Below are positions 17,180 to 33,987 of a DNA stretch of 46,825 bases, piece after piece. A model generated the notes under the pieces. The model worked only from the letters and a program-made list of their open reading frames with translations, ran no database searches and had not been told where the DNA came from. The first letter of the stretch is position 1. Each line of letters starts with the position of its first letter. The stretch comes from Elusimicrobiota bacterium (GTDB lineage Bacteria > Elusimicrobiota > Elusimicrobia > Elusimicrobiales > UBA9959), in NCBI GenBank assembly GCA_016234365.1, contig JACRER010000026.1:1-46825 (forward strand), given 5' to 3'. Both the position numbers and the translations under genes were made by a program.

Positions 17180-18487
17180 ATGAAACGACGGGTTTACCTC
17201 CCTGCGCTCTGCCTGCTGCTGGCCGCCGCCCCCGCGGGCGCCACCAAGCTGGACCTTTTTTCCGACGTGGAAGTGTCCGCCGTCAACTACCAGCACCTGC
17301 CCTACGGCAACACCCTGCGCTCCCAGGCCCTCTATACCGAGAACGCCCAGTTGGGCTTCGTCATCAAGAACATAAAACTGGAAAAAGTGCCGGAAGCCAC
17401 CATGGACGTGGGCATAGTGCTGCAGAGCATCGGCACAGGGGCCTCTTCCAACACCGTCTCGGGCAACCCGCAGTTCGCCGACGCGTCCGCCCGCCTGCCC
17501 CATAGCGACGGCACGCCCTACGTGCGCAACGCCTATGTAAAGATCTACAAGTTCATGCGGCCCAACATCACCGCCACCTTCGGCCGGCAGGATTTCACGC
17601 TGGGCCAGGGCATAACCCTTTCCGGCAGCGACCTGGGACTGCCCGGCGGCCGCCTGGAAATGGCGGAGCTCTACCACAACATCAAGGGCGACCTCTTCTT
17701 CTTCAGGCCTTTCAGCGGGGACCGCTACATAAAGGTCTACGGCGGCACGGCCTACTACCCGGCCAGCGAAGGCCTCTGGCAGGCCTACCACTTCTGGGAA
17801 GCCGACGACACCGCCGGCGGCCAGGACATTCTTTTCAATACAGCTTCCAAGACCAAGAAGTTCACCGGCCTGCGCTACGTGCTGACGCAGAGCCAGTTGT
17901 CCTTCGACGGCGAGGCCGTGGTGCAGCGCGGCTCGGCAAAGCTGGCGGCGGGGGGGACCGGCAAGTACGAGGCCCACGCCTTCATGCTCAAGGGCGCCTG
18001 GACCCAGGACATTTCCTTCTTCGGCAAGTCCAAAGTGCGGCTGGGCTACGGCCGCTCTTCCGGCAACCCGGGCACCGGCTCATCCACCGACAAGGCCTTC
18101 TTCCCCGCTTTCGGCAGCAAGTACAATGGCCTGGAGCGCAAGGGCTACGGCGCCATAGCTGGCGCGTCCCTGTACGACATGGTCAAGACGTCCTCCACGC
18201 TCAACGGCCTGCCCTACGGCATGTCCGGGCTCAACATCATCAACATAGGCGCCGACCTGCCCTACAAGAAAATGATCGTCTCCGCGGACCTGTACAAGTT
18301 CCGCGCCTCCAAGAATTCCAGCGGCGGCACCCTGCAGATAGCCAGCGAGTTCGACCTGAAAGCCACTTACGCCTTTGGCGACAACCTCAGCGTAAACGCC
18401 GTTTACGCCATTTTCACCCCGCTTGGGGCGTACCCCTCGTCCAAGCAGGCCAAACTCATCAGCGGGGCTGTCGCGGCCCGTTTCTAG
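17180..18487 (+). CDS. Outer-membrane beta-barrel protein
   Basis: 435 residues. Signal peptide about 1-21 (ends AGAT). The rest looks like a large barrel: alternating strands, aromatic girdles, a motif RPNITATFGRQDFTLGQGITL typical of porins of the alginate-export type, and a terminal ISGAVAARF. It differs in sequence from the adjacent porin, so it is not a simple duplicate. The promoter suggests a short or absent leader: TATAAT ends 8 nt before the ATG and no Shine-Dalgarno sequence is present. Transport substrate unknown. Confidence 0.75.
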   Translation: MKRRVYLPALCLLLAAAPAGATKLDLFSDVEVSAVNYQHLPYGNTLRSQALYTENAQLGFVIKNIKLEKVPEATMDVGIVLQSIGTGASSNTVSGNPQFADASARLPHSDGTPYVRNAYVKIYKFMRPNITATFGRQDFTLGQGITLSGSDLGLPGGRLEMAELYHNIKGDLFFFRPFSGDRYIKVYGGTAYYPASEGLWQAYHFWEADDTAGGQDILFNTASKTKKFTGLRYVLTQSQLSFDGEAVVQRGSAKLAAGGTGKYEAHAFMLKGAWTQDISFFGKSKVRLGYGRSSGNPGTGSSTDKAFFPAFGSKYNGLERKGYGAIAGASLYDMVKTSSTLNGLPYGMSGLNIINIGADLPYKKMIVSADLYKFRASKNSSGGTLQIASEFDLKATYAFGDNLSVNAVYAIFTPLGAYPSSKQAKLISGAVAARF

Positions 18488-18572
18488 GCCTACTAGCCTG
18501 TCCCACGTTATTTTTTACCGCTTAACCCGGCCCTAAACCGGGAAACACTACCTTTCCACCCGCCAAAAAAGT

Positions 18573-18596
18573 CTATCGAGGCCGGGCCTCAATAGG
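18573..18596. repeat. Palindromic 24-bp repeat, copy 1
   Basis: Arms CTATCGAGGCC and GGCCTCAATAG pair around one base with one mismatch, then G. An almost identical copy, differing by one base at the centre, starts 131 bp downstream at 18,704. Confidence 0.75.
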
Positions 18597-18703
18597 TCGA
18601 CCAGCCAAAACGGACCCAATACAGGGCTCTGAAAGCTGGTTTTGGAGCCGGGGGGGGTGGGGGGAGAATCCGCCCCAGGCCCATAGTTCCACGCCCTCTC
18701 CCC

Positions 18704-18727
18704 CTATCGAGGCCCGGCCTCAATAGG
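18704..18727. repeat. Palindromic 24-bp repeat, copy 2
   Basis: The same arms as copy 1 and the same flanking G, with central C instead of G. The pair could be protein-binding sites, recombination sites or small REP-like elements. Neither is followed by a U-tract. Confidence 0.75.
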
Positions 18728-18841
18728 CCCGGGGGGCTTGCTTTGGGCGGGGGGATATCCCCCTCCTGGCAGCTAAAAAAACGCCAGAACACCTGCCGCA
18801 CGCCTCAAAAAGTTGCCATATCCCGCCACGGGGCCCCGACG

Positions 18842-18850
18842 TTATCCACA
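18842..18850 (+). promoter_or_regulatory. Perfect DnaA-box-like nonamer
   Basis: TTATCCACA, the consensus DnaA box, followed two bases later by the weaker TTATTAACA. Only one consensus box is seen, so it is not evidence of oriC by itself. Confidence 0.5.
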
Positions 18851-18897
18851 GGTTATTAACACATGTTGACATATGCCTGCCATATGATTGCCATATA

Positions 18898-18926
18898 TTG
18901 ACATATAAGCAGTTATACGCTACAAT
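18898..18926 (+). promoter_or_regulatory. Promoter of the HTH gene
   Basis: TTGACA (18898-18903), 17-bp spacer, TACAAT (18921-18926). The -35 is part of a TGACATAT repeat, so occupancy of the array should repress it. Confidence 0.8.
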
Positions 18927-18957
18927 AGCGACATATCAGGACTCAAAGACAACAACT

Positions 18958-19440
18958 ATGAACTTCAAATTACGCATTAAGCACCCGTCAGGCGCAGAAT
19001 TCGAGGCCGAAGGCCCGGCGGAGTTCATCCAGGCCGAAAAGAACGGCTTTCTGCGCGGGCTAAGCGCCGCCGGACAGGCCGGAGAGGCCGCAAAACATCA
19101 TGAAGAACAGGCAGGAGAACCGGCCTGGGACACCCTGGCCGAGGCCAAAGGCGGCCTGCTAATACTGCGCAACAAGCACCAAAGCCTTAAAGCCGGGGAC
19201 GCGGCCCTGATGATCCTGGCGGCGGAAAAACTGCTAAACAAGACCAGTTCGGTGGGCGCCATAGCCCTATCCAAGGCCATAAAAGCCTCCGGCTATGCCC
19301 CGGAACGCATAGACAGACTGCTCGCCAAGGCCAACAGGGAAGGCCTGCTAAAGGCCTCCGGCACCAAGCGCAACAGGGCCTACCAGATAACCGACAGGGG
19401 TCTGGAAAGGGCCTGGCTGGAAGCGAGAAAGCTGATCTAG
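18958..19440 (+). CDS. Winged-helix DNA-binding protein near the terminus
   Basis: 160 residues from the ATG at 18958; an upstream in-frame start would precede the promoter and is rejected. The N-terminus (FKLRIKHPSGAEFEAEGPAEFI) looks like a small beta-rich domain. A linker (about 45-80) follows. The C-terminal 75 residues resemble a winged helix: two helices (AALMILAAEKLLN; GAIALSKAIKASG), a recognition-like helix (PERIDRLLAKANREGLL) and a wing (RNRAYQITDRGLERAW). It is the only gene between the barrel genes and the dif-like site. Its own promoter carries the repeat array, so it is the best candidate to bind it. Transcription regulator is preferred; a small replication- or terminus-related factor is possible. 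Confidence 0.7.
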   Translation: MNFKLRIKHPSGAEFEAEGPAEFIQAEKNGFLRGLSAAGQAGEAAKHHEEQAGEPAWDTLAEAKGGLLILRNKHQSLKAGDAALMILAAEKLLNKTSSVGAIALSKAIKASGYAPERIDRLLAKANREGLLKASGTKRNRAYQITDRGLERAWLEARKLI

Positions 19441-20328
19441 AGGAAGAACGAGCCGACCCCAATAATGCAAAGCCGCGGCCGCCAGGCCGCAAACGGAGCA
19501 GAAGCCAGGGCGCAGCCCAAAATACCACAGAACCGCAGCATCACAAGGCGCCTTACGGCGCTGGAATATAACTTACGATAAGATATATTATGTTAACCAA
19601 GTAATCCCCTTTGATTTATAGCCCTATGCGATAAACATTATCAATGTTTTATAAATAATGCTTATTTTTCAATCATTATTTACAAATACCAAACACCATT
19701 TATAGGTTTTTTTAATTGGCAGGACAGTTCGTTCCCGGAATCAGGCTCCCGCCGGTTTTTTTGGATCCGCAAAGTCAAAAACTTGCCAACTTTTTTGCGA
19801 TCCAAAGACCGTCAGACCTGGATTTCAGCTAAAACCACCCCTTCCTGAAAATACCATCAGGCAGCCAAAAACGCTAGGCCGCGCAGATCCGAAAAATTGC
19901 CAACTTTCAAAAAACCGTTAACCGGGGGTAAGGGCAACCGCCCTGAAACGGCCCCCTGGAGGCCAAAATACCCCCAAAACCACCCCCCCCCGCCCCAAAT
20001 ACCATTAAGACCAGGGCCGGCAGCTGCCGGAAAACAGGCTGAAAATCAGCCAACTTTTAAGGAATTTAAGAATACCATGAAGGACCAAAGAGGGCAAAAA
20101 GCTGAAAAACGCCAGGGATTTGGCGTTCCTGAAAATACCATGAAGAGCCCTGGAACGGCCAAAAGGGACCGGCGAAGGGTGAAAAGAGGCGGATCAGTAT
20201 TTTACGAGGAGGCAAAAAAACACCACGAAGAGCATAGAAACACATACCGGCCCGTGAAGGTTCCTCTTGGTGGTGGGAGAAACCCAGGGAAAGCGGCAAA
20301 AACGCGCCCGGAAAAGCCCAGGAGAGGC
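19441..20328. other. Non-coding region around the dif-like site
   Basis: An AT-rich core (about 19,560-19,730) contains the dif-like sequence and an inverted repeat, AAACATT (19633-19639) and AATGTTT (19643-19649). To its right are short dispersed repeats. TTCCTGAAAATACCAT occurs at 19842 and 20126; AATACCAT also at 19998 and 20071. TTGCCAACTTT occurs at 19783 and 19897, and GCCAACTTT at 20049. GGATC(C)GCAAA (from 19763) and TTTGCGATCC (ending 19803) are inverted. No convincing gene; a 151-codon frame from 19,897 is discussed among the rejected items. Confidence 0.6.
19571..19598 (+). other. Putative chromosomal dif site (XerCD target)
   Basis: A 28-bp sequence built like dif: XerC-side arm ACTTACGATAA (19571-19581), 6-bp centre GATATA, XerD-side arm TTATGTTAACC (19588-19598). 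The right arm matches E. coli dif (TTATGTTAAAT) at 9 of 11 bases, and the left arm begins ACTT as in Bacillus subtilis dif and ends ATAA as in E. coli. The surrounding genes converge on this point from both sides. Together these indicate the site where chromosome dimers are resolved. Confidence 0.8.
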
Positions 20329-20350
20329 AAAAAGAAGCCGGCCGCGGCTT
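20329..20350 (-). terminator. Terminator of the 12-gene minus-strand cluster
   Basis: On the minus strand AAGCCG-CGGC-CGGCTT is followed by CTTTTT. It lies 46 bp beyond the stop of the last gene. Confidence 0.65.
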
Positions 20351-20395
20351 AAAACAGCGCGTGGCCGGTTAAAAATAAACCAGGAAGAGGCTTTA

Positions 20396-20695
20396 TCAGC
20401 CTTTTCCCCGGTATGAAACGATGATGGCGGGGATTATGAGCAGATAACCGGCCAAAAGACAGGCCGGAGCGGCCACGGACCAGGCATTACTACCCCCCGG
20501 ATCCGCTTTCTTAAGGAAAAGATAACCGGAAACTATCAGGATAACCGCCGCCGCCCAGAAAAAAGGCGCCAGGGCGCTCTTCTCCCCCTCCCCGGCCGGA
20601 TCCTCCGCCGGGAAAGACGCCTGCGCCCGGGGCGCGGGACTTTCCGGGGGGCGCTTTAGCGGCTTGCCGCCGTCGCCCTTGCGCTTTCTGGCCAT
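20396..20695 (-). CDS. Small two-helix membrane protein
   Basis: 99 residues, no family recognised. A basic, Pro-rich N-terminus (KRKGDGGKPLKRPPESPAP), then two hydrophobic segments at about 44-60 (FFWAAAVILIVSGYLFL) and 73-93 (AAPACLLAGYLLIIPAIIV), ending in RGKG. It is the last gene of the minus-strand cluster, 10 nt after the HEAT-repeat gene. Hydrophobic layout and gene position support reality; function unknown. Confidence 0.6.
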   Translation of the reverse strand: MARKRKGDGGKPLKRPPESPAPRAQASFPAEDPAGEGEKSALAPFFWAAAVILIVSGYLFLKKADPGGSNAWSVAAPACLLAGYLLIIPAIIVSYRGKG

Positions 20696-33404: not shown

Positions 33405-33421
33405 AGACGACAGTTAAGTGA

Positions 33422-33493
33422 GCGCCCGTAGCTCAGTGGTAGAGCATCCGCCTTTTAAGCGGGTGGCCGCGCGTTCGAATCGCGCCGGGCGCA
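33422..33493 (+). tRNA. tRNA-Lys (anticodon TTT)
   Basis: Acceptor GCGCCCG/CGGGCGC, anticodon stem TCCGC/GCGGG around loop CTTTTAA (anticodon TTT), T-arm GCGCG-TTCGAAT-CGCGC, discriminator A at 33493. No encoded CCA. Confidence 0.96.
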
Positions 33494-33528
33494 ATAATAT
33501 TCGGTCCCAGAAAGGGGGAAGTAACATA

Positions 33529-33987
33529 ATGAACAAGAACAGAAAAGGCTTCACGCTGATAGAGCTGCTCGTCGTCGTGCTCATCATCGGCATCCTGGCC
33601 TCCATCGCCATCCCGCAGTACTTCAAGGTCGTGGAAAAGGCCCGCGTCTCCGAGGCCATGTCCATCATTTCCAGCGTCAAGTCGGCCGAGGAACGCTTCC
33701 TCGCGCGCGGCGGCAGCTATACGCAGGACTTCACCCAGCTCGACATTTCCTACGCCGGGATGACGGCCACCAACCTGTCCTCCAAGTTCTACAGCGCGTC
33801 CGCATCGGCCGGCACCTGCACCAGCGGCCCCTGCTACGTGCTGACGCTTACGCGCCACACCAACGCTTCCACCGTGGCGGCCCGTTACGGCAACTATTCG
33901 CTTAACGTCAACGTTCCGGAAAAGCCCCAGGTCACCATCGCGGCCTGCCCCGGCGGCGGCGCGAACTGCAACGAGCTGATAGACTAA
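33529..33987 (+). CDS. Type IV pilin / pseudopilin-like protein
   Basis: 152 residues. Leader MNKNRKG then FTLIELLVVVLIIGILAS: prepilin peptidase would cut after G7, leaving methylated F8, and E12 is the conserved Glu5. The helix continues through AIPQYFKVVEKARVSEAM. The globular domain has two Cys pairs (CTSGPC; CPGGGANC), possibly disulfides. Good Shine-Dalgarno-like AAGGGGGAAG. This pilin style is common in Elusimicrobiota. It is one of very few plus-strand genes right of the terminus. Confidence 0.92.
   Translation: MNKNRKGFTLIELLVVVLIIGILASIAIPQYFKVVEKARVSEAMSIISSVKSAEERFLARGGSYTQDFTQLDISYAGMTATNLSSKFYSASASAGTCTSGPCYVLTLTRHTNASTVAARYGNYSLNVNVPEKPQVTIAACPGGGANCNELID

What the first reader, a model, noticed from the sequence alone, without database searches (positions are those of the whole stretch)
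18487..20396. Replication terminus with a dif-like site at the convergence of two gene arms
The sequence at 19,571-19,598 has the 11-6-11 layout of dif, with an XerD-side arm matching E. coli dif at 9 of 11 bases. Left of it all protein genes but one are on the plus strand; right of it all but one are on the minus strand. Genes usually run with replication, so forks would meet here. A dif site in this lineage would fix the terminus without a skew plot.
Basis: partly seen in the sequence, partly recalled or inferred. Interest (0 to 1): 0.8.

Follow-up and report, generated by a model that had tools for sequence, protein, structure and literature searches.

The report
Chromosome dif site with phased array
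The 28 bases are the single site (dif) at which this bacterium separates accidentally joined chromosomes, and in this bacterial class the site has two unreported companions: a DNA-binding-protein gene on one side and, on the other, a row of short repeats spaced by whole turns of the DNA helix.

Summary
Window 19571-19598 is an 11-6-11 dif, one copy in the 2.72-Mb genome, conserved across the class Elusimicrobia and lying where the two gene arms converge. A relative carries a microvirus provirus inserted at exactly this site. Dif in Elusimicrobia was predicted in 2011, so dif itself is not new.

Three things around it appear undescribed. (1) Runs of six or more G point towards dif and flip there: in a closed relative the best change point is 915,833-917,597 and dif is at 917,174. 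GC skew there flips about 97 kb away, so dif marks the segregation (FtsK-type) junction, not necessarily where forks meet. (2) A 160-aa winged-helix protein gene lies just upstream of dif on the same strand (61/61 genomes with both on one contig), and stays in family f2, which lost nearly all other neighbours. Its promoter overlaps phased TGNCATAT repeats next to a DnaA box. (3) To the right, one-way AAAATACCATGAAG repeats lie whole helical turns apart (~10.5 bp), in several families.

Repeats and gene can each occur without the other, so the gene product is probably not the only repeat binder. Best guess, inferred: a wrapped protein-DNA complex built at dif.

The parts
19571..19598 (+). dif: XerC arm ACTTACGATAA, centre GATATA, XerD arm TTATGTTAACC
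   Evidence: single copy in the genome; conserved in relatives
18958..19440 (+). 160-aa protein gene: N-terminal beta-beta-alpha segment (residues 1-37), low-confidence linker, C-terminal winged helix (about 79-159); linked to dif
   Evidence: 61/61 genomes with both on one contig have dif downstream on the same strand; model pLDDT 82; no family match
18867..18906 (+). four helically phased TG[AC]CATAT repeats (spacing 11, 11, 10 bp); the last overlaps the -35 box
   Evidence: the paired form occurs nowhere else in the genome
18930..18936 (+). further GACATAT 30 bp on, just after the -10 box
18842..18850 (+). DnaA box TTATCCACA upstream of the repeats
   Evidence: DnaA-box-like site upstream of the gene in 39 of 72 loci, upstream of other ORFs in 21 of 841
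18898..18926 (+). sigma-70-like promoter TTGACA-17-TACAAT of the 160-aa gene
   Evidence: 11 of 12 consensus matches
19599..19740 (.). conserved AT-rich non-coding element on the XerD side of dif, including the imperfect inverted repeat 19648-19686
   Evidence: mean information 0.65-0.75 bits per column over 38 ungapped loci against 0.13-0.18 further left
19849..20231 (+). array of AAATACCATGAAG-type repeats (starts 19849, 19997, 20070, 20133, 20218), all one strand, helically phased
19785..20057 (+). GCCAACTTT copies at 19785, 19899 and 20049 interspersed with the array
19093..19105 (+). array-type repeat inside the linker of the 160-aa gene (AAACATCATGAAG)
18650..18754 (+). G-runs (18650, 18659, 18731, 18749), part of the polar G-runs pointing at dif; C-runs begin at 19983 on the right
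   Evidence: 10 G / 0 C runs left of dif, 3 G / 8 C right; Fisher p = 0.001

Best explanation
19571-19598 is the chromosome's only dif, the site where XerC/XerD resolve chromosome dimers, and it marks the junction towards which an FtsK-type pump would be steered. Shown by comparison: one copy, conserved in the class, at the junction of polar G-runs and (in the genus) of gene orientation, and used for integration by a microvirus in a relative. It sits in a class-specific locus. On the XerC side is a gene for a winged-helix protein whose promoter overlaps phased repeats next to a DnaA box, so it is probably self-regulated and DnaA-responsive (inferred). On the XerD side is a conserved AT-rich element and a one-way repeat array with copies whole helical turns apart. 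Most likely (inferred, about 0.5) the array is bound by proteins on one face of the DNA, forming a wrapped complex that controls synapsis or positioning of dif. The confidence below is for the dif and segregation-junction part.
For: Uniqueness; conservation across families and orders; XerC/XerD-type recombinases and an FtsK with a sub-threshold gamma domain. G-run change point 915,833-917,597 with dif at 917,174; 21 G and 0 C runs between the skew switch and dif. Gene linkage 61/61, retained in f2 where other neighbours are lost. Phasing: adjacent spacings R = 0.80 (n = 83), unique spacings R = 0.72, pooled representatives R = 0.84 (n = 25, 0 of 5000 jittered sets); replicated in other orders and families. 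Provirus integration at dif.
Against: No experiment. The own assembly is in 100 contigs, so origin-terminus geometry is untested. Family f2 lacks the array and three genomes without a detected dif-linked gene have it, so gene and array are not one obligate unit. The array's binder is unknown. Loci are related, so the Rayleigh values overstate independence, although the length classes differ by whole turns. Part of the gene-dif linkage in f1 and other orders reflects general synteny.
Confidence: 0.9

Rival explanations
1. Terminus organiser or centromere-like site: the array and/or the winged-helix protein anchor or hold together the sister termini at mid-cell (works like MatP/matS or a plasmid centromere), with no direct role in Xer recombination.
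For: Phased binding-site arrays and winged-helix centromere binders (TubR, AspA) appear among the weak structural neighbours; the array is local to dif and on one side.
Against: No distributed sites: the operator pair is unique in the genome and array copies lie within about 1 kb of dif; no partner ATPase gene recognised beside it.
Confidence: 0.25
2. Replication fork trap: the winged-helix protein works like B. subtilis RTP, blocking forks at the phased sites in its own promoter and near dif.
For: Winged-helix fold, gene at the terminus, sites overlapping its promoter. Tus and RTP are likewise autoregulated from a ter site in their promoters (PMC10331603).
Against: No sequence relation found; no second, opposed cluster of sites; array copies all face one way; in two f2 relatives skew switches about 90-100 kb away.
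Confidence: 0.1
3. Only dif is functional. The gene is a bystander kept by synteny and the repeats are intrinsically curved or remnant DNA.
For: General synteny around dif is kept in f1 and some other orders; AAA tracts right of dif show a period of 10.4 bp; f2 does without the array.
Against: The gene stays with dif in f2 after the neighbours are lost. The repeats have a specific core (AATACCAT) enriched about 1500-fold beside dif and spacing classes that differ by whole turns in several families.
Confidence: 0.2
4. One reading: replication forks normally meet at or within a few kb of this dif.
For: Gene orientation flips at dif in the window and in G019.
Against: GC skew flips opposite dnaA, about 97 kb from dif, in the closed relative G033, and about 88-108 kb away in G026; G019 shows no skew switch at dif.
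Confidence: 0.2

Closest known systems
XerCD/dif chromosome dimer resolution (E. coli, B. subtilis; predicted in Elusimicrobia by Kono et al. 2011, PMC3025954)
   Same: 11-6-11 site, single copy, XerC/XerD and FtsK encoded, junction of polar motifs
   Different: chromosomal dif is not described (in what I searched) with a phased repeat array or a linked winged-helix gene
cer/psi plasmid Xer sites with accessory sequences (ArgR/ArcA and PepA; PMC5357621)
   Same: a core Xer site with adjacent accessory DNA organised in a nucleoprotein complex
   Different: this one is chromosomal, the array is on the XerD side, reaches to about +700 bp and is of another sequence; its binders are unknown
KOPS / AIMS polar motifs (GGGNAGGG in E. 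coli)
   Same: strand-biased motif that flips at dif and becomes denser towards it
   Different: here a plain run of six or more G; GGGNAGGG itself shows little or no polarity in f1 loci
B. subtilis RTP / Ter
   Same: winged-helix protein gene at the terminus with sites overlapping its own promoter
   Different: no sequence relation found, no opposed site clusters, no evidence of fork arrest
Microvirus proviruses inserted at dif (gokushoviruses, PMC7062461)
   Same: capsid and Rep genes between a hybrid and a complete dif
   Different: host is an Elusimicrobia genome (L132)

Membership tests
dif (XerCD) | two 11-bp arms around a 6-bp centre, matching known dif | tested here: met
dif (XerCD) | single copy per chromosome | tested here: met
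   (draft genome, 96.5% complete)
dif (XerCD) | two Xer recombinases encoded | tested here: met
   best hits XerD (292 bits) and XerC (304 bits), both under the equivalog cut-offs
dif (XerCD) | lies at the replichore or polar-motif junction | tested here: met
   in relatives; window G-runs
dif (XerCD) | GC-skew switch close to dif (usual, not strictly defining) | tested here: inconclusive
   about 90-100 kb away in two relatives; not testable in the own genome; Kono 2011 also find no strict coincidence
dif (XerCD) | recombination by XerCD | not testable with these tools
   indirect: provirus integrated at dif in relative L132
KOPS | polarity that flips at dif | tested here: met
KOPS | bound by FtsK gamma and steers translocation | not testable with these tools
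   gamma-like domain only below the cut-off
RTP fork-trap protein | sequence relation to RTP | tested here: not met
RTP fork-trap protein | two opposed clusters of Ter sites | tested here: not met
cer/psi accessory sequences | accessory DNA beside an Xer core | tested here: inconclusive
   conserved phased DNA beside dif, but no functional test
cer/psi accessory sequences | ArgR/PepA dependence | not tested
   binder of the array unknown
MatP/matS | many sites spread over the terminus macrodomain | tested here: not met
   array core confined to about 1 kb beside dif; operator unique

The most novel reading that the evidence does not exclude
A chromosomal dif that works with a dedicated accessory system: a one-way array phased to the DNA helix wraps the XerD side of dif into a nucleoprotein complex, and a linked winged-helix protein under DnaA control acts in cis at the terminus. 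This would be a new mode of controlling chromosome dimer resolution or terminus handling, specific to the class Elusimicrobia.
Probability: 0.4. Interest if true: 0.8.

Novelty: new variant of a known kind. Interest (0 to 1): 0.62.

Why it matters
Chromosomal dif is regarded as needing only XerCD and FtsK, while plasmid Xer sites use accessory DNA and proteins. A chromosomal dif with a conserved phased array and a co-inherited DNA-binding gene would blur that divide and gives a ready test: deletions and 5-bp insertions. The split between skew switch and dif, with G-run polarity following dif, separates replication ending from segregation ending inside one closed genome. G-run polarity also locates dif in draft genomes without a skew plot.

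Tried and rejected
The hypothesis that the 160-aa protein binds the array: weakened, because f2 has the gene without the array and three genomes (f9, f5, f3) have the array without a detected dif-linked gene. Plasmid or phage origin of the gene: no relatives in viral contigs, plasmids or phages. Known family: none in Pfam, NCBIfam, PHROGs or PDB sequences; structure matches only generic winged helices. The array as coding sequence (ORF 19897-20352): rejected, because spacing classes such as 73, 74 and 136 bp are not multiples of three but are whole helical turns. E. coli and B. subtilis KOPS/SRS motifs: little or no polarity in f1 loci. The first G033 hit of the loose pattern (698,833) was rejected as a chance match: its XerC arm does not fit, and G-run polarity and the better site point to 917,174.

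Full report
Observation. The sequence at 19571-19598 is ACTTACGATAA-GATATA-TTATGTTAACC. It is the only site in the 2,720,323-base, 100-contig genome with up to three mismatches. A degenerate form is found in 34 of 41 relatives, nearly always once, with a few control hits in three genomes. Left of it the genes run on the plus strand; right of it on the minus strand, except the pilin-like gene at 33418-33987. The genome encodes two Xer recombinases, one best matched by XerD and one by XerC, and an FtsK whose gamma domain scores below the curated cut-off.

Prior knowledge. Kono et al. (PMC3025954) predicted dif in Elusimicrobia in 2011, so the presence of dif is not new. The named relatives fetched are nearly all labelled Elusimicrobia or Elusimicrobiales. 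The closed relative G033 (1,643,562 bases, dnaA at 889) has the size I remember for Elusimicrobium minutum; that identification is from memory.

Is it the replication terminus? In G033, GC skew changes sign at about 820 kb, opposite dnaA, while dif is at 917,174. In G026 dif is at 352,003 and skew changes at about 440-460 kb. The offset is about 90-100 kb, on the gene side of dif in both. In G019, of the window's own genus, skew is weak but gene orientation flips at dif: plus fraction 0.79 in the 20 kb that ends at dif, 0.17 in the next. So the predicted skew switch within a few kb is not met where it could be tested. Kono et al. [quoted passage not shown]

Polar G-runs. A search for words whose polarity flips at dif found GGGGGG among the top words in all five data sets. 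In G033 the best single change point for runs of six or more G versus C is between 915,833 and 917,597, which brackets dif; agreement is 110 of 129 runs at dif and 89 at the skew switch. In the 97 kb between, there are 21 G-runs and no C-run although the skew there is slightly negative. G026 and G019 behave alike. In f1 loci G-runs become denser within 2 kb of dif. The window shows 10 G and 0 C runs left of dif and 3 G and 8 C right (p = 0.001). This is the behaviour of FtsK-orienting sequences; binding by FtsK is inferred.

A linked gene. ORF 18958-19440 (160 aa) has homologues in 118 of 248 genomes sampled from the phylum, essentially single copy and only within the class. Where gene and dif are on one contig, dif is downstream on the same strand in 61 of 61 genomes, at a median of 320 bp. 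In the named collection a dif lies downstream in most of the 80 loci; most exceptions are contig ends. Synteny alone does not explain this: in family f2 nearly all other window neighbours are gone (0 or 1 of 31 loci for most genes, 13 for a TPR gene, 2 for a porin) while the gene remains in all 31 (loci were chosen by the gene, but dif is beside it in them). The predicted structure is an N-terminal beta-beta-alpha segment and a C-terminal winged helix (mean pLDDT 82). It matches no family, only generic winged helices, and has no detected viral or plasmid relatives. Its promoter (TTGACA-17-TACAAT, 11 of 12) overlaps four TG[AC]CATAT repeats spaced 11, 11 and 10 bp, with another 30 bp on; the pair is unique in the genome. 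A DnaA-box-like site lies upstream in 39 of 72 loci against 21 of 841 other ORF upstreams. Autoregulation and DnaA control are inferred.

The array. To the right of dif, about 150 bp of non-coding sequence is conserved without gaps in 38 loci. Beyond it lie repeats of consensus AAAATACCATGAAG, all on one strand; across f1 loci 138 of 142 matches lie between -2000 and +1500 of dif. AATACCAT occurs 75 times there and never in reverse or in the distant control DNA of the same loci. In the own genome, 4 of the 15 near-matches lie beside dif, including both exact ones; the rest are scattered single-mismatch hits (3 reversed-pattern control hits). Spacings fall at about 52, 63, 73, 84, 94, 104, 136 and 147 bp, whole turns of a 10.5-bp helix: R = 0.80 for adjacent spacings, 0.72 for unique values, and 0.84 for representatives from several families, not reached in 5000 jittered sets. 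Other orders show the same design (AAAGACCATGAAAG), and so do genomes G083 and G224, with a single copy in G144, where no dif-linked gene was detected. Family f2 lacks it. Gene and array are therefore separable, which argues against the simple idea that the gene product is the array's only binder.

Independent sign that dif is used. In L132 a 4.55-kb microvirus provirus (Phage_F capsid, E = 9.5e-133; Rep; pilot protein) lies between a hybrid site with the XerC arm and centre and a complete dif. Gokushovirus prophages at dif are known in other bacteria (PMC7062461, found).

Interpretation. That the 28-mer is dif is close to certain (about 0.97, my estimate). That it marks the segregation junction is well supported. 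That forks meet there is unproven. Helical phasing, single orientation and restriction to one side of dif fit best with a wrapped protein-DNA complex at dif, comparable in principle to accessory DNA at cer/psi (PMC5357621) but not shown to be a member of that family. A centromere-like or anchoring role is the main rival; a fork trap is less likely. None of these functions was tested.

Noticed in passing
L132:3986-8540: A 4.55-kb microvirus provirus (capsid, Rep, pilot genes) is inserted at dif of an Elusimicrobia genome, with a hybrid dif on one side and a complete dif on the other.
   Followed up: yes
L100:6199-6264: A scaffold gap of N lies inside dif with dif sequence on both sides, and several other contigs end within a few hundred bases of dif; strain variation or mobile insertions at dif could explain this.
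   Followed up: no
L252 (G222:C2), about 2617 and 3120: Two further dif-like sites in opposite orientation about 500 bp apart in one f2 genome, on a contig other than the one with its dif.
   Followed up: partly
G033:C1 820-917 kb: The GC-skew switch and the dif/G-run junction are about 97 kb apart in a closed genome; a similar offset on the same side is seen in G026.
   Followed up: partly
window 18573-18727: A 24-base palindromic repeat (CTATCGAGGCCGGGCCTCAATAGG) occurs twice 131 bp apart, between the porin-like gene and the promoter region of the 160-aa gene.
   Followed up: no
G000:C9:27340-27816: A second protein with a DnaA-type domain (589-aa open frame) besides DnaA; similar second copies occur in the relatives searched.
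   Followed up: no
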